Below, one piece after another: positions 12,169-22,692 of a stretch of DNA of 64,000 nucleotides. Both the position numbers and the translations under genes were made by a program. Position 1 is the first letter of the stretch; the number at the start of each line of letters is the position of its first letter. The stretch comes from Terriglobales bacterium. GTDB taxonomy: Bacteria; Acidobacteriota; Terriglobia; Terriglobales; Acidobacteriaceae. Under the pieces are notes generated by a model, which saw only the letters and a program-made list of their open reading frames with translations, did no database searches and was not told the origin of the DNA. The DNA is taken from NCBI GenBank assembly GCA_025936825.1, contig JAICSO010000018.1, forward strand, positions 1 through 64,000, in the 5' to 3' direction.

Positions 12169-13107
12169 ATGAAATTAGAGGAAATCAAGAACAAAACCAA
12201 CGAAGCAGTCAGCTATCTCGTCGAGGCTCTTGAAAAGGGTCAGAGTGAGGTGTTGAGCGAGTATTTGAATGCAATGGCGCGGTTTCACCAGTACAGCTTT
12301 GGGAACATCATGTTAATTGCTCGCCAGAGGCCGACGGCAACTCGGGTTGCCGGAATCCGCACTTGGAACTTGCTTGGCCGCTTCGTTAGGCGCGGAGAGA
12401 AAGGCATTTTGATTCTGGCTCCTATGGTCGGGGGTGAGAATCAGCAGAGTGATGCGGTCGCTACGGAGATCGCAACCGACAACGCAGCCGATGAACGTAA
12501 ACGGGAAGCGCAGCTATATGGGTTTCGTGCCGTGTACGTGTTCGATGTCAGCCAGACCGAAGGCAAAGAACTGCCCAGCCTAACCGATGTCGAAGGCGAT
12601 GTCAGCGGCTATCGCGAGAGACTCGTTGAGTACGTCGAGAGCAAGGGCATAAAACTCAGCTACTCGGAGAAGATTGCACCCGCGAAAGGCTTGTCTTCGG
12701 GCAAGCGAATCACTCTGCTGACCGGGATGCAGCCAGCTGAGGAGTTCTCGACTTTGGTGCATGAGATGGCACACGAGATGTTGCATCGCAGTGAGCGCCG
12801 GACTCTAACCAACAAAGAAGTACGCGAGACCGAAGCCGAGGCCGTCGCCTTTGTGGTTTGCCAATCGATTGGACTTGAAACCGGAACCGCTTCTGAGGAT
12901 TACATCCGACTCTGGAATGGCAGCGCCAAGCTGTTGCAGGAGAGCTTGGAAGTAGTGCGGCGAACCGCTTCCGTAATTCTTGGCGGAATCGTCCCCAAGC
13001 CTGCAGCGACAATAGACGGAGATGCCGTCGCCAATCTCCAACCCTCTAACACGTATGCATCTCAGCCGTCAATGACGGCTGAGGCGGCGTCTGTTAGTGC
13101 ATTCTGA
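12169..13107 (+). CDS. ArdC-like antirestriction protein
   Basis: Residues about 1-110 match the ArdC N-terminal single-stranded-DNA-binding domain: AMARFHQYSFGNIMLIARQR, then RTWNLLGRFVRRGEKGILIL. The C-terminal half is a zinc-metalloprotease-like domain with the HExxH motif in VHEMAHEMLH, followed by EVRETEAEAVAFVV, whose Glu would complete the zinc site. ArdC proteins protect incoming conjugative DNA from restriction in the recipient. The ATG at 12169 follows AGAAAGGAAAAATC. The gene faces the convergent MobF relaxase gene and marks the left part of the mobile region. The Ala/Pro/Ser-rich C-terminal tail is not conserved in type. Confidence 0.8.
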   Translation: MKLEEIKNKTNEAVSYLVEALEKGQSEVLSEYLNAMARFHQYSFGNIMLIARQRPTATRVAGIRTWNLLGRFVRRGEKGILILAPMVGGENQQSDAVATEIATDNAADERKREAQLYGFRAVYVFDVSQTEGKELPSLTDVEGDVSGYRERLVEYVESKGIKLSYSEKIAPAKGLSSGKRITLLTGMQPAEEFSTLVHEMAHEMLHRSERRTLTNKEVRETEAEAVAFVVCQSIGLETGTASEDYIRLWNGSAKLLQESLEVVRRTASVILGGIVPKPAATIDGDAVANLQPSNTYASQPSMTAEAASVSAF

Positions 13108-13171
13108 AACGGAAACCATCCATTTGGGAGTGAAAATGCGGCGCAGCAACGACTTGTGGCCGCTTGCGGAT

Positions 13172-15982
13172 TCACCTGCTCAAAGTATCCGACTGGTCAA
13201 GTTCTGGCGGACGACGCAAGTGCTGCGCACTTGCGCCGTCTCGATCATCAGAAACTGCATTCATTGAAGAACTAGCGCGTGAATCTCCGCCCCCACTACC
13301 CAGGCGCGGTTGTGCATGCCGCTCGGCGAAGGTCTCCCGAGCTGGCTGCTCGCCTCTTCCTCGCAGCATCAATTCGTGAGCGGATTGTCGGTGATCGGAA
13401 CGTGCGACAGAATCGGAGAGCCGTTCCTTATCCGTCGTAACTACTGTTAGCCGATGGCGTCCGCGTGAAGCCGCCACGTAGAACGATTGTCGCCGCATTC
13501 CATCGGCTGAAATAATTACGTGATCGACCGATTTGCCCTGACTGCGATGAGCTGTGACCGCGTAGCCATGGGCGAATTGCTTGTAGTTCTGCGGCAGTAC
13601 TCGACCATCTTGCAGGTGAATCCGTTGTTTTTCGTCAACTGCAGAAACCGTCACCAACTCCCCATTCACTGCCCTAAAACCCGGCTCACGCCGGTTTTCC
13701 AGGAGCAGCAGCTTGTCGTTTGGGGCAATCTCGATCTTCGAACGCTCGTACACGTCAAAGGCTTTCGCCTGTTTTGATGTAAACGTCCGCTCTTCGCCTC
13801 GGGAATTTCGGGCAACAACCGTTTTTCCCTTACGGCCGACTACCTCCAGCGTCTCGTTCTTGTTCACGCCTTTTACGGCCCGATGAAACTTGAGTACTTG
13901 TCCTGATTGGTAATTCCGCGAGGCTTGCTTCTGTGCCGTCGTCCAATTCAGGGAAACGTGTCTTTCTACTTCAATACTGGCCCCCAGCTTGCCTGATCGC
14001 GAGCGTTCTCCGCGAATCGCCGCCGTAATTTGCTCGATGTCGTCGTGTGTCGCAGCGACAACCAGGACATTCGGGTTTTGTCCTTTCGCGTTGAGCTCCA
14101 TATTTGCGTCTGTGTATGCCTTCTGGACCGCCTCGGCGCGATCTTCCCAAGAAACCTCTCGAATTGCTCCCATTCCGTCGAGCTTCGCAATCCCCTGTTC
14201 TGGATCGCGACGCAGCTCTTGCACTGCTTCACGGTATTCAGCGCTTGACTGGCGTTGGACTTGAGTCAGCAACACACTTTTGAGGCCTGATTCCTTCTCC
14301 AGGAGTCGGAGCGCATCCGTTGATTCGACGCTACGGATTTGGCGCGTGTCGCCACTGAATACCAGTCGCGCCCCTTGATCTTCCGTCAACCTCAGCAGGT
14401 CGGACATTTGCCGCCCTGAAATCATTCCCGCCTCATCGGCGATTATGACTTTGTCTGAAAGATTGGTATGAGCTCTCTCGTCTTGCAGAAGGCGCTGTAT
14501 GGTCATTGCGTCGTTAAACCCGACTTTTTGCAGCTCTTCGACGGCGCTCATGGTCGGAGCGACTGCAACAACTTCGCGCCCGCTTTCGTTCAGCGCCCGG
14601 TGAAGTTCCTGCAACGTGGCAGTTTTTCCGGTTCCCGCAGCACCATGAATGTTGACTGCCAGGTCACGACTTCTCAGAACAAAGTCAACGGCCTTCCGTT
14701 GCTCAAGACGCAATTGGCTGGACAATTCGATTTCGACGTTGCCGAGCGAGTTAAACTTGCCAATGCCCCCATCAATACGGGCAATCATGTCGTGTTCTCG
14801 TTGAAGTGTTTCGCGGGTGGCAATGTCTTTTCCCGCGCGGAGCAATTCGCCGCTACTTTCCTCAAACGCGAAAGTGCCCCTGAGTTGATCTAAGTCGATC
14901 CGCCCACGGCCATGCCGCAATGCTTCGGTAAGCAGCTCATGATCGCGGGCAACCGAAACGCGCTCGAATACGTGTTGTTCGGCATACTCCAACGACTCCG
15001 TTGAGGATTCCGGCTCGCGCTCAGGTTGTCGGGATGAGGCTTCTTCCCGAAGTTCCGTGAGATCGAAGGCTTCGTCCGGACTCAGCCGTTCGTGCTGTAG
15101 ACGATACACCTCGTCAGTTGAAATCTCCACCAGCTTGTCAGCTCGTGATTCTCGTACCAGGACTGCCACTTCGTTGTCGGTCGGCTTGCGTCCATTCACC
15201 TTCGTGAACTCGTCTATTGCCCGGTCACGCTGGTGACTGCGTTGACTGTATTTCTCAATAAGTTCATGAGACACACCCTTGATCTCGAATCCCAGGTCCT
15301 TGCCTTTGGCATCGCGACGGTCCTCGACTTCGTACCCCAGGCTTCGGACTTCGCGAGCCAGAGCATTGCGGTATACCTCTGTCAAATAAGCCCGCTGCTC
15401 ATAGATGTCTGAGGCCTGTAGTGCTTTCCAGCTCCCTTCTGTGCCGTCGTACGTCAGGTTGGCTGCAACCGCATGGGTATGTAGCTGAGGGTCAAGTTCG
15501 CGGCTGGTGTCATGGTGATAGACCGCAAGCACCAGATTGCTGGTTGTGCGGTCGCTGTTTCCTCCGTCCTTTCGGACGCGACTCGCTGCCTGCAGTTCCA
15601 GCTCTTTGAGTGTCTCGTCGACGGCTTTTCGATGGGCTTCGATGAGCCTCTCATCGCCACCTACTTTCGCCATCACAGAAACGGATTTTGGAGCGGAAAT
15701 GGTGAAATCGTAGAGATTGCGGCCACGGCTCTGTACAGTTCCATCCGCTCGAATGCGGTGCGCGCTGTGCCGCTGCCGAAGAAAGTTCCCGGTGCTTGGA
15801 TCCAGTCCTTGCCGCACACCTTCAAAATCCGTGGGCTCGACTTCACCTGACAGTCCCAGCAGTTCTGCTCCGCGTCCCTGCCAGGTGCCGACGACCCGCT
15901 CGCCTTCGGCGTAGTAATCGCTGTGCTGCAAGTGCCGCTCGGAATAGCCTGATCCGTCCGACATCGCGCGAATGGTCAGCAT
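13172..15982 (-). CDS. MobF (TrwC-type) conjugative relaxase-helicase
   Basis: The N-terminal relaxase domain (about 1-290) carries a tyrosine pair at residues 23-24 (SDYYAEGE) and the three-histidine metal site His156, His168 and His170 (HHDTSRELDPQLHTHAV). These would nick and bind the transfer strand. Residues about 420-850 form a RecD/TraI-type helicase, with Walker A at 447-454 (GAAGTGKT), a DEAG Walker B (KVIIADEAGM) and a late motif TAHRSQGKSVDHV. At 936 residues it is a full-length family member with no internal stop. Transfer would begin at an origin beside it, and the hairpin-repeat region just upstream (16026-16127) is the best candidate. No coupling protein or type IV secretion genes are visible, so the element is probably mobilised by a helper or its machinery lies elsewhere. 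Confidence 0.92.
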   Translation of the reverse strand: MLTIRAMSDGSGYSERHLQHSDYYAEGERVVGTWQGRGAELLGLSGEVEPTDFEGVRQGLDPSTGNFLRQRHSAHRIRADGTVQSRGRNLYDFTISAPKSVSVMAKVGGDERLIEAHRKAVDETLKELELQAASRVRKDGGNSDRTTSNLVLAVYHHDTSRELDPQLHTHAVAANLTYDGTEGSWKALQASDIYEQRAYLTEVYRNALAREVRSLGYEVEDRRDAKGKDLGFEIKGVSHELIEKYSQRSHQRDRAIDEFTKVNGRKPTDNEVAVLVRESRADKLVEISTDEVYRLQHERLSPDEAFDLTELREEASSRQPEREPESSTESLEYAEQHVFERVSVARDHELLTEALRHGRGRIDLDQLRGTFAFEESSGELLRAGKDIATRETLQREHDMIARIDGGIGKFNSLGNVEIELSSQLRLEQRKAVDFVLRSRDLAVNIHGAAGTGKTATLQELHRALNESGREVVAVAPTMSAVEELQKVGFNDAMTIQRLLQDERAHTNLSDKVIIADEAGMISGRQMSDLLRLTEDQGARLVFSGDTRQIRSVESTDALRLLEKESGLKSVLLTQVQRQSSAEYREAVQELRRDPEQGIAKLDGMGAIREVSWEDRAEAVQKAYTDANMELNAKGQNPNVLVVAATHDDIEQITAAIRGERSRSGKLGASIEVERHVSLNWTTAQKQASRNYQSGQVLKFHRAVKGVNKNETLEVVGRKGKTVVARNSRGEERTFTSKQAKAFDVYERSKIEIAPNDKLLLLENRREPGFRAVNGELVTVSAVDEKQRIHLQDGRVLPQNYKQFAHGYAVTAHRSQGKSVDHVIISADGMRRQSFYVAASRGRHRLTVVTTDKERLSDSVARSDHRQSAHELMLRGRGEQPARETFAERHAQPRLGSGGGDSRASSSMNAVSDDRDGASAQHLRRPPELDQSDTLSR

Positions 15983-16025
15983 GGAAGAACAACCTCAACA
16001 ACTCACTTTGCAAATAGACACCATC

Positions 16026-16044
16026 CCTAAGCCTTCGGCTTAGG
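16026..16044. other. Hairpin, candidate oriT element
   Basis: CCTAAGCC-TTC-GGCTTAGG is a perfect 8-bp inverted repeat with a 3-base loop. It lies 44 bp upstream of the relaxase start, in the divergent gap before the HTH gene. MobF relaxases recognise an inverted repeat next to the nic site near their own gene, which makes this the most likely oriT hairpin. The nic position cannot be placed. Confidence 0.5.
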
Positions 16045-16061
16045 TTCGGTGCAGCGTCCGC

Positions 16062-16123
16062 TGTGCGGAGGCTTCGCGGTCAATTTGCGGTGGATTTGCG
16101 GAGTGTTCGCGGCCTCTTTGCGG
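16062..16123. repeat. Six 7-bp direct repeats on an exact 11-bp period
   Basis: Copies of TKYGCGG begin at 16062 (TGTGCGG), 16073 (TTCGCGG), 16084 (TTTGCGG), 16095 (TTTGCGG), 16106 (TTCGCGG) and 16117 (TTTGCGG). The 11-bp step puts all copies on one face of the helix, as in iterons or parS/operator arrays bound cooperatively. They lie between the hairpin and the 16187 gene, whose product or the ParA partner system could bind them. Confidence 0.7.
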
Positions 16124-16186
16124 AGCTTCGGCCATCCTTTCTGGTTGCGTTCAGCGTCTGTTCTTAACAGCAGTTTTGGAGATCGA

Positions 16187-16645
16187 ATGAAGCCGCAATT
16201 TGAAGCCATTCTCAAAACCTTGCCTCCGCAAACACCGCGCTCGCGGTTACATCCCTATAGCGAGCTAATTCGTGAGATGCGAAAACGCAAACGTTCTTAT
16301 CGCGAAATCACTGAAGTCTTGCGCGATCAGTTTGGGTTGAAGGCAGGCATCAGCACCGTCAGAGATTTCTTGCGAGCCCAGACGAAATCAAAAACGAAAC
16401 ACCGCGAACGAAACAATCACAACTTGCACACCACGAGGAACAGGAAAGCACTTACAGCAACAAATAAGGAACGAGAAGCACTGGCAGGCACTGCAAGGAC
16501 ACAGAAGGCGTTTGAGAGCACTGAACGACATTTTCAGGAATCAATGCAATCACGTTTGTCAAAACTTTCGAACAGGCCACGCTTTGAATACAACTCTGAA
16601 GAGCCGTTGCGCATTCTGCGTAAGCAGGGAGAGCACGATGACTAG
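16187..16645 (+). CDS. Predicted HTH DNA-binding accessory protein of the mobile element
   Basis: The ATG at 16187 follows TTGGAGATCGA and is preferred over the in-frame upstream start at 16049, which would run through the repeat array. The N-terminal part (HPYSELIREMRKRKRSYREI then TEVLRDQFGLKAGISTVRDF) reads like a helix-turn-helix with an Arg/Lys-rich first helix. The C-terminal half is Lys/Thr/Arg-rich and probably disordered. Its position 60 bp after an 11-bp-phased repeat array and directly before a ParA-like ATPase suggests a centromere- or oriT-binding partner. It overlaps the ParA gene start by 8 bp. No firm family match is claimed. Confidence 0.55.
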   Translation: MKPQFEAILKTLPPQTPRSRLHPYSELIREMRKRKRSYREITEVLRDQFGLKAGISTVRDFLRAQTKSKTKHRERNNHNLHTTRNRKALTATNKEREALAGTARTQKAFESTERHFQESMQSRLSKLSNRPRFEYNSEEPLRILRKQGEHDD

Positions 16646-17429
16646 CGATACCTCTACAGAACGGTTACAGCCTGAGATGAAGCTTCCGGTGTCAGTAGTA
16701 CCAATGCAGCAGGCCACAGAGCGCGTGATCCTGACAATGGGCGGCAAAGGGGGAGTCGGTAAGACTAGCTTCATGCTCGCACTTGCCGAATGGTTCGCCA
16801 CGCAGAAAGTCGAAGCCAAGTTGCTCGACCTCGACTCCGAGAACAAGACTCGTGGCAGCCTGTCGCACTACTTCAACAGAGGCGCGATAAAAGTAAACAT
16901 CCACACAGCAGCAGGCCTGGATTCGTTCGTTGACTACATCGAGGGTGGCACTTCGATTCTGTTGGCCGACATGGGAGCCAGCTCTGGCCAGGTCACATAC
17001 GGCTGGTTTGATTCCATGTTCGAGGACGTTCAGGCACTCGGCGTCAGCTTTACTGCAATCGGAATCGTCACGCCCGATCCCGCCAGTGTTGAAAGCGTGT
17101 TGAGTTGGGCTGCACACCTGCAAGATCGGGTCGAGTACATCATCGTAGAGAATGCGATCGCTTATCCGGCAGATTTCACCTACTGGCGCAAGAGCGAACA
17201 GGCTCACCGATTCCGCCAGGCTTTTAATCCCGTTGTGCTGACGATGGAGTTCCGTCTGCCGGAACTGGAAAATGCGGCTCGACAGCACGGAATCACTCTC
17301 AGCGAGATCGCCGAGCGCAAGCACGGCATACACGAACTGCAACGGGCTTCGCTCGTGCTTCGCGCTCAGAGCTACCGCAGGCGACTGTTCGAGGAAATTG
17401 AGAAAGCGAAACATCTGCTCTTGCCATGA
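16638..17429 (+). CDS. ParA/MinD-type ATPase of the mobile element
   Basis: The start is ATG 16638, with GGGAGAG just upstream and an 8-bp overlap with the preceding gene. The protein has a deviant Walker A motif (GGKGGVGKTS) in its N-terminal third, then LLDLDSENKT and a Walker-B-like strand SILLADMGASSG, typical of ParA/MinD/TraL-type ATPases. The 263 residues suit the family. In this setting, between a putative DNA-binding protein and a membrane protein in a MobF element, it could act in partition or, like IncP TraL, in transfer. The next gene overlaps by ATGA, so the three genes form one operon. Confidence 0.8.
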   Translation: MTSDTSTERLQPEMKLPVSVVPMQQATERVILTMGGKGGVGKTSFMLALAEWFATQKVEAKLLDLDSENKTRGSLSHYFNRGAIKVNIHTAAGLDSFVDYIEGGTSILLADMGASSGQVTYGWFDSMFEDVQALGVSFTAIGIVTPDPASVESVLSWAAHLQDRVEYIIVENAIAYPADFTYWRKSEQAHRFRQAFNPVVLTMEFRLPELENAARQHGITLSEIAERKHGIHELQRASLVLRAQSYRRRLFEEIEKAKHLLLP

Positions 17430-18274
17430 ACGACGAAGGCAAAATCGCAGACCGGACCTTCAAAGAAGCGGATTTCATAGACGAGATCGCGGAACTACTG
17501 CCAGCGGAACAGCGCCCATTGTGGTATCGCGACATGGCGCATCTTCGCCGCCTGCCCGCCGAGGACGAGCTACTGCGAATTGCACGCGCGATGGGATTTC
17601 TGGCGCTGATTACGAGGCAAGCCCCGGTTGCAATTGCTCAAGAGCGCGAAAAACTGATGGCAGCCTTAGAACACGCAATCAGCTCAACGAATGCAGCCCG
17701 CCAGGACACGATCAGGTTCCATCGTGAAGTCGAAAAGCGCTTGGCTACTATGCCCCAAGAAATAGCGGAAGGCATGAACCCGGCAGCCGTCGCTGCCATA
17801 CTCGCTGAAAGTCTGCGCCAGCAGTTCGCGCAAAGCGGCCTACCTGAAACTGCTCAAGCACTCGCTATCATCGGCAAGACCACCGCACAAACCGCAACTG
17901 AATTTGACCGTTCCTCACGGCAGCTACTCAATGATTGGAGGAACACCTCAAAACGATTTAGCGACGCTTTCGCCGATATGCGGGAAATGATCGACGATAC
18001 AACAGAAGCGGCAAGAGAAGCGGCGCAAGCATTAACCAAGACGTTCCTCAGGGAATATAGATGGTCGGTTCTGATGCTATGCGCGTCAGCACTGATGCTC
18101 GGATTCAGTCTGGGAATTATCTGGCATCGCTGGATTAGCTCAACGGGGTCAAGCCCGTCTTCAAATATTCCAACGACTTCTCAGCCCTCAGCCATAGAGC
18201 CACATCCTTCTGCCAGCAGTCAGCAAGAACACAAACCACATCCGCCGAGACCACGCCATGAGACCGCCCAATGA
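17426..18274 (+). CDS. Membrane-anchored coiled-coil protein of the mobile element
   Basis: The ATG overlaps the stop of the ParA gene (ATGA). The 282-residue protein is mainly helical, with a long predicted coiled coil (about residues 65-210, for example DTIRFHREVEKRLATM). One membrane helix follows (WSVLMLCASALMLGFSLGII, about 215-235), then a Ser/Pro/His-rich tail. The shape recalls conjugation or mobilisation accessory proteins encoded after the ATPase, but there is no recognisable family. It is likely anchored in the inner membrane. Its 3' end is 300 bp before the integrase start chosen here. Confidence 0.6.
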   Translation: MNDEGKIADRTFKEADFIDEIAELLPAEQRPLWYRDMAHLRRLPAEDELLRIARAMGFLALITRQAPVAIAQEREKLMAALEHAISSTNAARQDTIRFHREVEKRLATMPQEIAEGMNPAAVAAILAESLRQQFAQSGLPETAQALAIIGKTTAQTATEFDRSSRQLLNDWRNTSKRFSDAFADMREMIDDTTEAAREAAQALTKTFLREYRWSVLMLCASALMLGFSLGIIWHRWISSTGSSPSSNIPTTSQPSAIEPHPSASSQQEHKPHPPRPRHETAQ

Positions 18275-18531
18275 AACTGCCACTCCCAACAATCCGCATG
18301 ACGCCAGCCCGAACAAACCGCAGGTAAATTCTTCTTTCGTTTCTCCGGGCAGCAAACCGGAACCGCGAAGGCTCCGTCAAGGGACAAGTCCGCTGACGCG
18401 GTTCGCTCCGCTCACCCGTGACCGACCCTTCGCCGTTCCCGTCCAACCCGCCGCTACGAAACGCAAGAAGAAAAACGAAGTATCGCCCACAATCGAACTC
18501 GCAAACGTCGCTTCATCCGCAGGACATTCGG

Positions 18532-18570
18532 GTACAATCATGCTGCCATCCGTCCCGCAGACAAGGAGAT
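18532..18570 (+). promoter_or_regulatory. Likely integrase promoter -10 and ribosome-binding site
   Basis: TACAAT within GGGTACAATC at about 18532-18537 is a good -10 box without a clear -35. AAGGAGAT at 18563-18570 precedes TTG 18576 at normal spacing, and this pair decides the integrase start. Confidence 0.45.
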
Positions 18571-18575
18571 TTCCT

Positions 18576-19748
18576 TTGAAGCGGAAACGGTATCAAGCCG
18601 GTTCTTTACACCGGAAGAAAAGAAACAGAGGTTCAGACGTGTGGGTATTGCGATATCGCGAGTCGCGGCAGGGCGGCGCTCAAGCACATCGCAGCATCAT
18701 CATCGGAACAGTTGATGAATACCCCACGAAGGCCAAGGCTCAGAAGGCTGCCGAGGCGCTTCGTTTAACCCTCAACAGCGACTACAAACCTGCAAGTGTC
18801 TCCACCATAGCAACACTCGTTGACAGGTACATCCTTGAAGCAATGCCTGAACGCTACTCGACTACCAAAAGCTACACCTCCTATTTGAACGGGTTCATCA
18901 AGCCAAAATGGGGCGATTATGACCTCGTTACTCTGGGCCAGAACCCATTCTGGGTGGAGAAGTGGCTTCGAGCATTACCGAACGCACCGAAAACCAAAGC
19001 ACACATTAAGGGCCTCATGCACCGCTTGTACGAGTACGCAATGAAATGGCGCATGATGTCCATTCAACGAAACCCCATGCAGTTGGTCGAAGTGAAAGGT
19101 GTCTCCAGAAGAATGCGAAAGCCGAAGGTATTGACGGTGAGGCAATATCATTTGCTCTTACCGCTAATTCCGGAACCTTATCGCACGATGGTGGTAATCG
19201 CTCAATGCCTAGGCCTCAGAATTAGCGAAATTCTCGGCCTGCAATGGCGCGATGTTGATTTTGAATCGCTTGTTCTTCGAGTCGAAAGAGGAGTGGTTCA
19301 GGGTCATGTGGATCGCGTCAAAAGCGAATATTCCGAAGACGATGTTCCACTTGATCCTGCAATTGCAGACGTATTGCGGCACTGGCAAAAAGACTGCCCC
19401 GCAAGTGCTGAGGGCTGGTTATTCGCGAATCCAGCAACCCACAAGCCGTATCACGCTAGTGAAATCTGCAAAAACTACATACGGCCCGCGGCAGAAAAGC
19501 TCGGACTCGGGAAAATTGGCTGGCACACCTTTCGCCACACCTACAGGACGTTGCTTGATGAAACAGGCGCGCCCATGAAGGTGCAGCAGGAGCTAATGCG
19601 CCACGCCAACATTCAGACCACTATGAACGTGTACGGATCGGCGATGTTGGAAACTAAGCGAACTGCGAACAGCAAGATCGTTCGCATGGTTCTCTTTCCG
19701 TCAATTCCAAGGAAAAATGAAAAGGGCCGCTCGTCAGCAGCCTCTTAA
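18576..19748 (+). CDS. Tyrosine recombinase / phage-type integrase
   Basis: The frame is open from 18258, but the strong AAGGAG before TTG 18576 and the typical integrase opening (KRKRYQAGSLHRKKRNRGSD) identify that start, giving about 390 residues. An N-terminal SAM-like core-binding domain (about 75-170) is followed by the catalytic domain. It holds the first Arg in CLGLRISEILGLQW, the HxxR box in WHTFRHTYR, a late His in LMRHANIQTT and the nucleophile Tyr in MNVYGSAM. The stop is 57 bp from tRNA-fMet, the usual position for an integrase next to its attachment site. Related short repeats (TGTTCCC or GTGAACA) flank the tRNA on both sides and could be its arm-type sites. It appears intact. 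Confidence 0.9.
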   Translation: MKRKRYQAGSLHRKKRNRGSDVWVLRYRESRQGGAQAHRSIIIGTVDEYPTKAKAQKAAEALRLTLNSDYKPASVSTIATLVDRYILEAMPERYSTTKSYTSYLNGFIKPKWGDYDLVTLGQNPFWVEKWLRALPNAPKTKAHIKGLMHRLYEYAMKWRMMSIQRNPMQLVEVKGVSRRMRKPKVLTVRQYHLLLPLIPEPYRTMVVIAQCLGLRISEILGLQWRDVDFESLVLRVERGVVQGHVDRVKSEYSEDDVPLDPAIADVLRHWQKDCPASAEGWLFANPATHKPYHASEICKNYIRPAAEKLGLGKIGWHTFRHTYRTLLDETGAPMKVQQELMRHANIQTTMNVYGSAMLETKRTANSKIVRMVLFPSIPRKNEKGRSSAAS

Positions 19749-19765
19749 TGTTCCCTATTGTTCCC
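19749..19765. repeat. Two TGTTCCC repeats, candidate integrase arm sites
   Basis: TGTTCCC occurs at 19749-19755 and 19759-19765, 10 bp apart, between the integrase stop and tRNA-fMet. The reverse complement GGGAACA is the same as the last repeat of the array at 21470-21512. Confidence 0.55.
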
Positions 19766-19805: not shown

Positions 19806-19882
<77 letters not shown>

Positions 19883-19934
19883 ATGTAATGCTATCACAGG
19901 TTTAGCGTGATTCTCTCGCGACCCAAATACAATT

Positions 19935-19953
19935 TGTGAACAAAATGTGAACA
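19935..19953. repeat. Two TGTGAACA repeats, candidate left arm sites
   Basis: TGTGAACA occurs at 19935-19942 and 19946-19953, spaced 11 bp, about 54 bp inside the left att core. The same octamer occurs twice at the other end of the islet. Confidence 0.65.
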
Positions 19954-20021
19954 AAATTCACTTCCTGCGTTCCGCAGATTCGCACTTCCAATAGAGCCGA
20001 GGAGCCGTACTTTGCGACGGT

Positions 20022-20993
20022 CTATGGGATCTCTTGCTTGATAATTCTCGCTTTCGGTTTGTTCCAGTCGGAGACATCCAGTTCGACATCGACCGTAAGA
20101 ACGGGAAAATCGATCGCATAGAACTCATATCGAAGATCCCAGATCCCTCTCGTGATCGGCAGCAAGGGCGCTTGATCGAGATCAAGCGCCGTGTTCAGAA
20201 GTACCTGTCTCTCTTCAGGCATTGCCACAAGCTCAACCATCGCTCCGCTGGCGGGAGGAACCGACAGAATCAGGCTGCCCGGCTTGCTATAGGTGCCGAC
20301 ACAAAGCATGTCGAAGGCTTCCCACGACTTGGGAAAGATCGTGTGGGAAAAACCTGGTCTTGCTGTGGTCTTTAATGGGCTTCTGATCGGGCACGGAGTC
20401 AATGGCCCTCCAGAAGGCCCAAGCTGGGAGAGTCTAGCAGTAGCCTCCAAGGCAGCAATATCGGGACGTTGATTCCACACATCCATGTACAAGAATTGCC
20501 CCACTAGATTTCCATACCGAATAACTCTGTCCTCAAAGCGAAGCCCGTCTGCTCGTAAGCGTCGGGAGTAGTCGGTCATCCATTTCGCGCGATCGAGAAC
20601 TCGCTCGACCGTCGCGCAGCAATCGCTAACGTCAAGAAATGTTTCGGTGTTGATTCCCATGTACTTGAGTAGTCCTTCAGACAGGATGCCGTCTTGATTA
20701 ACGACCAGTATTTGGTCAAAGCCGAGCGAATATGCGATCGCCAACTCCTGATTCGAGAACAATGATCCTCGATACTTCCCGCAGGGGAGCATCTCACGGC
20801 GAAAATTAACGAACAAATAGCAGTCGCTGTTCTTCAACTCTCGAATGATTCCGCGATTGATATCCAGGATAGTCTGAACATCCACGGCGATGTAGACGTC
20901 AAAACCACGAGTTTCAAGGAGCTTGCCCAGTCTTCGAGCAACTTCTTGTTCCTCCGGTCGTTGACCGCAGCTAAGAAACACCCTGGCTTTCAT
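20022..20993 (-). CDS. TIR-like domain protein, candidate defence effector
   Basis: Residues about 1-130 have a TIR/SEFIR-like Rossmann pattern: first strand KARVFLSCGQRPEE, a helix, strand FDVYIAVDVQ, a helix ending at a third strand SDCYLFVNFRRE, then SLFSNQELAIAYSLG and QILVVNQDG. Glu83, in the helix after a Ser-containing loop, sits where NAD-cleaving TIR domains carry their catalytic Glu; this is inference. Residues about 150-323 form an unrecognised, strand-rich second domain. The ATG at 20993 begins at the first TIR strand but has no clear ribosome-binding site. The open frame reaches 21074, overlapping the upstream gene, so coupling from that gene is possible. It is the second gene of a two-gene operon inside the tRNA islet, a typical setting for anti-phage systems. 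It is not recognisably Thoeris: no ThsA-like gene is present. Confidence 0.6.
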   Translation of the reverse strand: MKARVFLSCGQRPEEQEVARRLGKLLETRGFDVYIAVDVQTILDINRGIIRELKNSDCYLFVNFRREMLPCGKYRGSLFSNQELAIAYSLGFDQILVVNQDGILSEGLLKYMGINTETFLDVSDCCATVERVLDRAKWMTDYSRRLRADGLRFEDRVIRYGNLVGQFLYMDVWNQRPDIAALEATARLSQLGPSGGPLTPCPIRSPLKTTARPGFSHTIFPKSWEAFDMLCVGTYSKPGSLILSVPPASGAMVELVAMPEERQVLLNTALDLDQAPLLPITRGIWDLRYEFYAIDFPVLTVDVELDVSDWNKPKARIIKQEIP

Positions 20994-21024: not shown

Positions 21025-21444
21025 CTACTGTACAGTGCATTGACGAGACGACCAGGGTACTCCTTTCGCCCCATGTTCAGCCCAGAGGGCTATTTTCTCG
21101 AACGGAACGTTCAGTGTAGTTTTCCGATTCTCGTCATAGACAACGAGCGAAAGCCGGAAGTCCGCGGAATCGAGCAACCAGAACAGGTTTTCTAACCGCT
21201 TCTGCCTTAGGCAGTCGATTCCTTTTGGACCTACCTCAAGCAGGTAGACCGTGTGCGTGTTGAAATCTATGTCCCACGCATCTGCCACGAGTGGAAGCCG
21301 TCTGGGGTGATCCTCGCTAGCTAGATATGCTAGAAATCCGCCGAGCGTGAACCCACGCGGTGATTTCGAGCCTGTCACGTAGTGCCAACATCGGGAATCA
21401 TCCGCCTCAATGATTTGTCTAACAACATCGTCATTCGCCGTCAT
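21025..21444 (-). CDS. Unknown 139-aa protein, partner of the TIR-like gene
   Basis: The ATG at 21444 has a strong ribosome-binding site (AAGGAGAGAGGCG). The protein is mixed alpha/beta, beginning MTANDDVVRQIIEADDSRC. It has a central strand-rich part (LVADAWDIDFNTHTVYLLEV) and a later segment RLSLVVYDENRKTTLNVPF. No family is recognised. A D-x(n)-E-V-G-x-K arrangement in the middle is only superficially like a PD-(D/E)XK nuclease and is not claimed. The stop is 31 bp before the TIR-like start, so the genes are almost certainly co-transcribed. By position it may be the sensor, regulator or partner of the TIR-like protein. Confidence 0.6.
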   Translation of the reverse strand: MTANDDVVRQIIEADDSRCWHYVTGSKSPRGFTLGGFLAYLASEDHPRRLPLVADAWDIDFNTHTVYLLEVGPKGIDCLRQKRLENLFWLLDSADFRLSLVVYDENRKTTLNVPFEKIALWAEHGAKGVPWSSRQCTVQ

Positions 21445-21469: not shown

Positions 21470-21512
21470 TGTGAACAGGACTGTGAACAATTGAGTGAAC
21501 AAAATGGGAACA
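21470..21512. repeat. Four phased GTGAACA-type repeats, candidate right arm sites
   Basis: TGTGAACA at 21470-21477 and 21482-21489, AGTGAACA at 21494-21501 and TGGGAACA at 21505-21512 are spaced 12, 12 and 11 bp, one helical turn apart. They lie about 95 bp inside the right att core and upstream of the two-gene operon, so they could also influence its promoter. Confidence 0.7.
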
Positions 21513-21606
21513 AAACGCGCAAACTACCGCTCTAACATTTTCAATGGGTTACAAGGTGGATCCGAAGAGAGGGTCAACGGAATCAACGGCTTAGAAATTT
21601 GCTCGA

Positions 21607-21648
21607 TGGGTTATGAGCCCAACGAGCTACCAGACTGCTCCACCCCGC
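21607..21648 (-). repeat. att core copy 2 (orphan 5' half of tRNA-fMet)
   Basis: This is an exact 42-bp copy of 19840-19881. It lacks the T arm and the 3' acceptor strand, so it is not a tRNA gene. It lies directly downstream of the promoter at 21655-21683 and marks the right end of the islet. Confidence 0.9.
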
Positions 21649-21654
21649 AGTTCG

Positions 21655-21683
21655 ATGATAGCAACCGTGTTCTGGAGCGTCAA
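21655..21683 (-). promoter_or_regulatory. Stranded tRNA-fMet promoter
   Basis: On the minus strand TTGACG (21683-21678), a 17-bp spacer and TATCAT (21660-21655) make an almost ideal sigma-70 promoter. Its start point would fall at the edge of the orphan tRNA half. It looks like the original tRNA-fMet promoter, now separated from the intact tRNA by the islet. Confidence 0.7.
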
Positions 21684-21861: not shown

Positions 21862-22692
21862 TTACGATTTTGAGCTTCTGACGCTGGTCTTCAGCTTGCG
21901 CACTTCGTCGAGATTCAATCGTCGGAATTCGCCGGGAGGAACGTCGAGAGTTAAGGGGCCGTAGCGGACCCGCTTGATCTTCTCGACGTGGTGTCCTATC
22001 TCTTCGAACATCTTTCTGAGCTGGCGATTTTTGCCTTCGATCAGGGTGACCTCGTACCACGGGTTCTCGGACTCCTTGATCACGCGGATCTTGGCAGGGC
22101 CAGTGCGGACTCCCTGGCGTTCCGATAGGCGAGCCCGCCGTGAACCAGGTTTGGTCGGACCGCCCGAAGCAGCGTTCGTTTGTGCCTCGCTCGATCCCAA
22201 TCCAACGCGTGACTCCGGAATCATTAGTCCACGGCGCAGCTTCTGCAGTCCAGCTTCACTCGGCATCCCGGCAATTTTCACGAGGTAGACTTTTTCTACG
22301 TGCGAGGCAGCTTTCATCAGTGCGTGCGCCAGTTCGCCATCATTGGTGAGGAGCAACAAGCCTTCGCTGCCATAGTCGAGGCGGCCCACGGGATAGACAC
22401 GCGCATGAATCCCACGCAGAAGGTTCATCACGGTCGGCCGCCCCTGGGGATCGCTCACCGTCGTCACATATCCCTTGGGCTTGTTCATCAACAGATAGGT
22501 GTGCTGCTCTGCGCCGCGCAGCAACTTGCCATTGACTCGGATGTGGTCGTTCTCGGGATCAGCCTTTGTACCGAGCTCGGTGATGGTCCGTCCGTTCACC
22601 TCAACTAGACCCGAGGTGATCATCTCCTCGGCTTTGCGTCGCGAGGCGATGCCGGCGGCGGCAATGATTTTTTGCAGGCGTTCGGCTGACAT
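21862..22692 (-). CDS. rluB: 23S rRNA pseudouridine synthase, RluB-like
   Basis: An N-terminal S4 RNA-binding domain (ERLQKIIAAAGIASRRKAEE) is followed by the RsuA/RluB catalytic domain. The catalytic Asp is in VGRLDYGSEGLLLLTNDG. The partner motif EGKNRQLRKMFEEIG and the MNKPKGYVTT segment are also present. These enzymes isomerise a uridine in the 23S peptidyl-transferase region. A Ser/Thr/Gly-rich insert of about 25 residues (EAQTNAASGGPTKPGSRR) lies between the core motifs. It is the last gene of the minus-strand block M50-trpS-scpA-scpB-rluB, 93 bp after scpB. The tRNA islet ends some 200 bp beyond its stop. Confidence 0.88.
   Translation of the reverse strand: MSAERLQKIIAAAGIASRRKAEEMITSGLVEVNGRTITELGTKADPENDHIRVNGKLLRGAEQHTYLLMNKPKGYVTTVSDPQGRPTVMNLLRGIHARVYPVGRLDYGSEGLLLLTNDGELAHALMKAASHVEKVYLVKIAGMPSEAGLQKLRRGLMIPESRVGLGSSEAQTNAASGGPTKPGSRRARLSERQGVRTGPAKIRVIKESENPWYEVTLIEGKNRQLRKMFEEIGHHVEKIKRVRYGPLTLDVPPGEFRRLNLDEVRKLKTSVRSSKS

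What the first reader, a model, noticed from the sequence alone, without database searches (positions are those of the whole stretch)
21655..21683. tRNA-fMet promoter separated from its gene by the islet
A near-consensus TTGACG-N17-TATCAT promoter points into the orphan tRNA half at 21648. The intact tRNA 1.8 kb away has only weak promoter-like sequence. Insertion seems to have moved an initiator tRNA under islet-supplied control, tying a translation-initiation gene to islet occupancy.
Basis: partly seen in the sequence, partly recalled or inferred. Interest (0 to 1): 0.7.

Follow-up and report, generated by a model that had tools for sequence, protein, structure and literature searches.

The report
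Initiator tRNA severed from its promoter
In this bacterium, two small mobile DNA elements appear to have rebuilt the only gene found for the tRNA that starts every protein, leaving the gene's own strong promoter stranded 1.8 kb away in front of the element's cargo genes; this 5'-replacing arrangement is known but rare in bacteria.

Summary
TTGACG-N17-TATCAT (21683-21655, minus strand) is the native initiator-tRNA promoter. The same extended-minus-10 promoter directly precedes the intact fMet gene in same-genus relatives. A matrix built from 25 relatives' promoters ranks it first of 127,920 positions in the window. It now fronts only an orphan 5' half (21648-21607). The sole intact initiator gene found (19882-19806) lies 1.77 kb downstream with only an extended minus-10 (TGATAGCAT) and no minus-35. 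The intervening unit X carries two genes on the promoter's strand: a TIR-like protein and a 139-aa protein. It has no integrase. Both ends carry GTGAACAAAATGKGAACA arm-type repeats found nowhere else in the 6.5-Mb genome. So X is best read as an integrase-less integrative islet that replaced the tRNA's 5' half and promoter. The 3' half adjoins a second element with MobF relaxase and tyrosine integrase, so the intact gene is probably a chimera of two mobile elements. Orphan 3' halves are common in relatives (at least 11 of 60); the tested orphan 5'-half junction occurs only here among 398 family genomes. Whether the tRNA is transcribed from the residual minus-10, by read-through from the stranded promoter, or both, is untested. 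Verdict: real, a rare variant of a known kind.

The parts
21655..21683 (-). Native initiator-tRNA promoter (TTGACG-N17-TATCAT, TG extended -10), now stranded
21607..21648 (-). Orphan 5' half of tRNA-fMet (42 bp identical to the intact copy; the base before it is T where the intact gene has C); not an Rfam tRNA
21607..21617 (-). Anticodon-loop core (CTCATAACCCA), probable crossover site, displaced copy
19840..19850 (-). Anticodon-loop core (CTCATAACCCA), probable crossover site, copy inside the intact tRNA
21471..21512 (+). Right arm of islet X: repeated GTGAACA/GGGAACA arm-type sites
21025..21444 (-). Islet ORF, 139 aa, no known family, preceded by AAGGAGAGAGGCG-ATG
20022..20993 (-). Islet ORF, 323 aa, N-terminal TIR-like domain (below curated cut-offs); start set by homologues (longer ORF runs to 21074)
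19936..19953 (+). Left arm of islet X: GTGAACAAAATGTGAACA
19888..19896 (-). Residual extended -10 TGATAGCAT upstream of the intact tRNA, no -35
19806..19882 (-). Intact initiator tRNA (CAU), the only one found in the genome; 5' half from islet X, 3' half adjoining element E1
19749..19765 (-). E1 integrase-proximal arm-type site GGGAACAATAGGGAACA
19725..19742 (-). Terminator-like hairpin downstream of the intact tRNA
18258..19748 (+). Tyrosine integrase of element E1, tail to tail with the tRNA
12169..17429 (.). E1 mobilisation genes: ArdC-like, TrwC/MobF relaxase (13172-15982), ParA-like ATPase

Best explanation
The segment X (about 1.77 kb) is a small integrase-less integrative islet that recombined into the anticodon loop of the single initiator tRNA gene. 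Unlike the usual tRNA-targeting elements, which carry a replacement 3' half, its attachment site carries a replacement 5' half. The host's own promoter and 5' half were therefore left at the far edge of X, and the rebuilt gene sits behind islet DNA. A second element, E1 (MobF relaxase plus tyrosine integrase), occupies the other side in the usual way, so its 3' half completes the gene. Shown: native identity of the promoter, its displacement, the matched terminal arms of X, the single intact initiator gene found, and the layout. Inferred: that X moved by site-specific recombination, probably with an E1-type integrase acting in trans or in cis; that the intact gene is transcribed from the residual extended -10 and/or by read-through from the stranded promoter; and that the stranded promoter now drives the islet's 139-aa/TIR-like operon, which has no consensus promoter of its own.
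For: Promoter identity in relatives without the islet and its matrix rank of 1 in 127,920. Orphan and intact 5' halves share 42 bp ending at the anticodon core, and leaving out X gives promoter-5' half-3' half without a gap. GTGAACAAAATGKGAACA arms occur at the two ends of X and nowhere else in 6.54 Mb with up to 2 mismatches. A related doubled GGGAACA motif sits at E1's arm and at a 3'-half junction on another contig. Orphan 3' halves occur in at least 11 of 60 relatives, showing the site is an anticodon-loop integration hot spot. A homologue of the TIR-like gene sits beside an integrase and tmRNA gene in G157. The initiator hallmark GGGCTCATAACCC occurs only at the two window copies.
Against: X has no integrase and no second example of the whole islet was found. 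The tested orphan 5'-half junction has no counterpart in 398 family genomes, so the event rests on one case. The collinear similarity of the X and E1 attachment arms is weak (10 of 300 shuffles reach it for one arm, 25 of 300 for the other). No transcription data exist. The distal end of E1 is not in the window. No relative carries the empty gene at this same chromosomal place; in relatives the gene lies elsewhere.
Confidence: 0.75

Rival explanations
1. The promoter is displaced but not lost: the intact tRNA is expressed mainly as the last part of a long transcript that starts at the native promoter, runs through the orphan half and the two islet genes, and is processed by RNase P and other nucleases. 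Islet occupancy then changes tRNA output only mildly. (Compatible with the integration history above; it differs on who drives the gene.)
For: Orphan half, 139-aa ORF, TIR-like ORF and intact tRNA all lie on the same strand. No terminator-like site on that strand lies between 21655 and 19882, and one lies just after the tRNA at 19742-19725.
Against: A 1.77-kb leader may be cut short by Rho-dependent termination (general knowledge). In the shuffles roughly one terminator-like site would be expected over this length and strand, so its absence is weak evidence. No RNA data.
Confidence: 0.4
2. The intact tRNA's upstream region is the native one and the half at 21648 is an imported duplicate with a foreign promoter.
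For: The gene is found elsewhere in relatives, so the rluB neighbourhood at 21862-22692 is not itself proof of nativeness.
Against: The promoter at 21655-21683 matches same-genus relatives closely, while the intact copy's upstream region lacks the -35 that 25 of 30 relatives' copies have.
Confidence: 0.03
3. The duplicate half is an assembly artefact or a chance segmental duplication rather than site-specific integration.
For: Draft assembly of 141 contigs; the repeat is only 42 bp.
Against: A 42-bp repeat is short for a misassembly, the repeat ends at the anticodon core used by other elements at this gene in many relatives, and matched arm repeats flank X on both sides.
Confidence: 0.05
4. 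X is not a separate minimal unit but the decayed end of a larger element whose integrase was deleted.
For: No integrase in X; E1 next door is an integrase-bearing element and the genome holds other integrases related to E1's.
Against: X's genes fill almost all the space between the two arms with no integrase remnant, and both arms are present.
Confidence: 0.3

Closest known systems
tRNA-gene genomic islands with tyrosine integrases (Islander type, PMC4383910)
   Same: Intact tRNA gene plus displaced fragment in the same orientation at the island's other end; crossover apparently in the anticodon loop. Islander's rules accept a 5' fragment lying upstream of the gene.
   Different: X has no integrase and at 1.77 kb lies below Islander's 2-kb floor.
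pTN3-like 5'-half integration (archaea) and the few bacterial cases reviewed in PMC8371274, which cites Williams 2002
   Same: The element brings the 5' half, so the rebuilt tRNA gene is no longer next to its own promoter.
   Different: In pTN3 the integrase promoter drives the tRNA and the integrase gene is split. Here there is no integrase in X, the target is the sole initiator tRNA found, and the stranded promoter faces the cargo genes.
Cis-mobilizable elements (CIMEs) in tandem accretion with ICEs/IMEs (term occurs in PMC5704250 and PMC7563491; definition from general knowledge)
   Same: Attachment-like sites at both ends, no recombination or transfer genes, adjacent to an element with relaxase and integrase at the same tRNA.
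   Different: X brings the opposite tRNA half and its arms run in the opposite orientation to E1's; mobilisation not demonstrated.
TIR-domain anti-phage proteins (Thoeris ThsB/ThcB-like)
   Same: Weak N-terminal TIR-like match.
   Different: Scores are below curated cut-offs where these exist, and there is no partner gene of a known system.

Membership tests
Integrative island in a tRNA gene | Intact tRNA gene and displaced fragment, same orientation, correct side | tested here: met
Integrative island in a tRNA gene | Uninterrupted gene (promoter directly before intact gene) in relatives | tested here: met
   Met at gene level in relatives; no relative with the same chromosomal neighbourhood was found
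Integrative island in a tRNA gene | Integrase gene inside the island | tested here: not met
   X encodes only the TIR-like and 139-aa proteins; the integrase belongs to adjacent E1
5'-replacing integration (pTN3-like) | Element supplies the 5' half and upstream DNA of the rebuilt gene | tested here: met
5'-replacing integration (pTN3-like) | Rebuilt tRNA expressed from an element promoter (integrase promoter) | not testable with these tools
   Only a residual extended -10 is seen; no RNA data
5'-replacing integration (pTN3-like) | Integrase gene of the element, split on integration | tested here: not met
   No integrase gene in X
Cis-mobilizable element (CIME) | Flanked by att sites, lacking recombination and transfer modules | tested here: met
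Cis-mobilizable element (CIME) | Att sites related to those of the neighbouring helper element | tested here: inconclusive
   Doubled GKGAACA motif shared, wider alignment weak
Cis-mobilizable element (CIME) | Excision or co-transfer with the helper | not testable with these tools
   needs excision PCR and mating
Thoeris / TIR defence | TIR profile above curated cut-off and partner gene | tested here: not met
   TIR_2 20.1 bits against 28; ThcB4 15.6 against 220; PADLOC ThsB E=0.00018

The most novel reading that the evidence does not exclude
A defence-type islet without its own integrase or promoter integrates inside the cell's only initiator tRNA gene, takes over that gene's strong promoter for its own operon, and relocates the rebuilt initiator tRNA, assembled from two mobile elements, to the end of that operon, so that protein-synthesis capacity and the islet's expression become coupled.
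Probability: 0.25. Interest if true: 0.75.

Novelty: new variant of a known kind. Interest (0 to 1): 0.55.

Why it matters
[quoted passage not shown] Here what looks like a single-copy, essential tRNA gene lost contact with its promoter and the lineage survives. That gives a natural experiment on how much initiator-tRNA promoter strength matters, and a clean candidate for promoter capture by a minimal islet.

Tried and rejected
Looked for an empty site at the same chromosomal place next to rluB in relatives: none of the rluB loci scanned has a tRNA within the flank held (up to 1.5 kb), so the neighbourhood is not conserved. Looked for E1's far end in the window: no third core copy; a likely end lies on contig C54 at 3829 with an E1-like arm, but the C119 and C54 ends do not overlap. 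Scans of the genome collection with either islet protein found nothing; plasmids gave none. AlphaFold of the TIR-like protein without an alignment was poor (mean pLDDT 37), so no fold search was made. The G021 5' half first looked like a second orphan but is a tRNA split by a group I intron. ARAGORN's second tRNA-Met at 21555-21648 is spurious: Rfam's tRNA model finds only the intact copy. Williams 2002 itself is not held in the library and is cited through the review.

Full report
What is there. On the minus strand, reading right to left, the order is: rluB (21862-22692); a TTGACG-N17-TATCAT promoter with a TG extension (21683-21655); an orphan 5' half of the initiator tRNA (21648-21607); a 139-aa ORF (21444-21025); a TIR-like ORF (20993-20022); the intact initiator tRNA (19882-19806); a terminator-like hairpin (19742-19725); and, tail to tail, a tyrosine integrase (18258-19748, plus strand). 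The two 5' halves share 42 identical bases ending at the anticodon core. The base just before them, tRNA position 1, is T in the orphan and C in the intact gene.

Is the promoter real and native? A generic consensus scan cannot say: two sites were found against 2.8 expected in shuffles. Relatives can. The intact fMet genes in same-genus genomes G004, G001 and G003 are directly preceded by a close variant of the same promoter, for example GTTTGACGCTGCATAGCACGGTTGCTATCAT in G004 against GTTTGACGCTCCAGAACACGGTTGCTATCAT here. Twenty-five of 30 relatives' gene copies carry TTGAC in the same slot; the script printed 25 of 31 because one row was this genome itself. A matrix from those 25 promoters, excluding this genome, scores 21683-21655 first of 127,920 positions on both strands of the window. 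The best full promoter score upstream of the intact gene (19883-19960) is matched or beaten by 0.6% of all positions. The intact gene keeps only an extended -10, TGATAGCAT, at the native distance from the tRNA. As a -10 alone it is in the top 0.026%, but nothing fits at -35.

Is the intact gene the only one? A search with the 79-base gene finds one intact copy, this orphan 5' half and two orphan 3' halves. The initiator-specific anticodon stem-loop GGGCTCATAACCC occurs only at the two window positions; one looser match on C21 is not in a tRNA. The assembly is 99.67% complete but in 141 contigs, so a second copy in an unassembled repeat cannot be fully excluded.

What separated them? Leaving out the 1,767-bp unit gives promoter, 5' half and 3' half in one uninterrupted gene. 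The unit ends in GTGAACAAAATGTGAACA on one side and GTGAACAAAATGGGAACA, in a longer cluster, on the other. These are the only occurrences in the 6.54-Mb genome with up to two mismatches. Doubled motifs on both sides of a core are what tyrosine-integrase arm sites look like. E1 has GGGAACAATAGGGAACA beside its integrase, and a similar doublet lies beside a 3'-half junction on contig C54. X's doublets lie on the plus strand and E1's on the tRNA strand. This suggests that X uses the same kind of attachment site turned round on the dyad-symmetric anticodon stem-loop, which would explain why it carries the 5' rather than the 3' half. The wider alignment supports this only weakly, so it stays an inference.

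The gene is probably a chimera. E1 carries a TrwC/MobF relaxase, an ArdC-like protein, a ParA-like ATPase and an integrase, the anatomy of an integrative mobilizable element. Its integrase lies tail to tail with the tRNA 3' end, as at the orphan 3' half on C54, whose integrase is 52% identical. In that usual layout the 3' half belongs to the element. The working initiator gene would then consist of X's 5' half and E1's 3' half, with the host's own 5' half stranded at 21648 and its 3' half displaced or lost. The E1 part is inferred from layout.

How rare is it? Orphan 3' halves occur in at least 11 of 60 relatives. The strict orphan 5'-half junction pattern is found only in this genome among 398 of the family; that pattern would miss orphan halves whose next base is A or whose tRNA sequence differs. 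[quoted passage not shown] Islander's rules (PMC4383910) allow 5' fragments but reject islands under 2 kb.

How it probably works. No other sigma-70-type consensus lies on that strand between 21700 and 19700, and no terminator-like site lies between the stranded promoter and the intact gene. The simplest reading is that the stranded promoter drives a leader containing the tRNA half, then the 139-aa protein (preceded by AAGGAGAGAGGCG-ATG), then the TIR-like protein, with some read-through into the intact tRNA. The intact gene also has its own weak extended -10. The share of each source is unknown. Because excision of X would rejoin promoter and gene, the change is in principle reversible.

Cargo. 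The TIR-like protein falls below curated cut-offs for TIR_2 and Thoeris families. Homologues with 56-59% identity exist in G157 and G610, and in G157 the gene sits beside an integrase and tmRNA gene. It is thus a rare gene with at least one relative in a mobile setting; a defence role is plausible but untested. The 139-aa protein had no homologue in 150 family genomes.

Noticed in passing
L065 4974-5183 (genome G021, contig C249): In relative G021 the initiator tRNA is split in the anticodon loop by a group I intron (Rfam RF00028, 52.5 bits, E 2e-12); no uninterrupted fMet gene was found there.
   Followed up: partly
G021 loci L068 (3' half at about 6522) and L069 (3' half at about 1954, minus strand): G021 also carries two further copies of the intron end plus tRNA 3' half on other contigs, so the intron end or the intron-bearing gene may be multi-copy.
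   Followed up: no
L002 and L003 (contigs C54 and C32): Two orphan fMet 3' halves in this genome, each with arm-like sequence, one followed by an integrase; they suggest a tandem array of elements at the initiator tRNA broken over contigs.
   Followed up: partly
window 21649 versus 19882: tRNA position 1 is T in the orphan half and C in the intact gene; relatives vary among C, T and A at this position, which faces A72, a determinant of initiator identity (general knowledge).
   Followed up: no
L081 1431-3633 (genome G157): Homologue of the islet's TIR-like protein directly beside a tyrosine integrase and tmRNA gene.
   Followed up: partly
L103 (genome G610, contig C42 9553-10473): Another homologue of the TIR-like protein with one stop inside the match, possibly a decaying copy.
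   Followed up: no
window 12169-18274: Integrative mobilizable element with MobF (TrwC) relaxase, ArdC-like protein and ParA-like ATPase next to the tRNA.
   Followed up: partly
L048 about 1501-2757 (genome G025): Intact fMet gene with an orphan 3' half only 1.2 kb downstream and no integrase-sized recognisable gene between: another very small tRNA-bounded unit, of the usual orientation.
   Followed up: no
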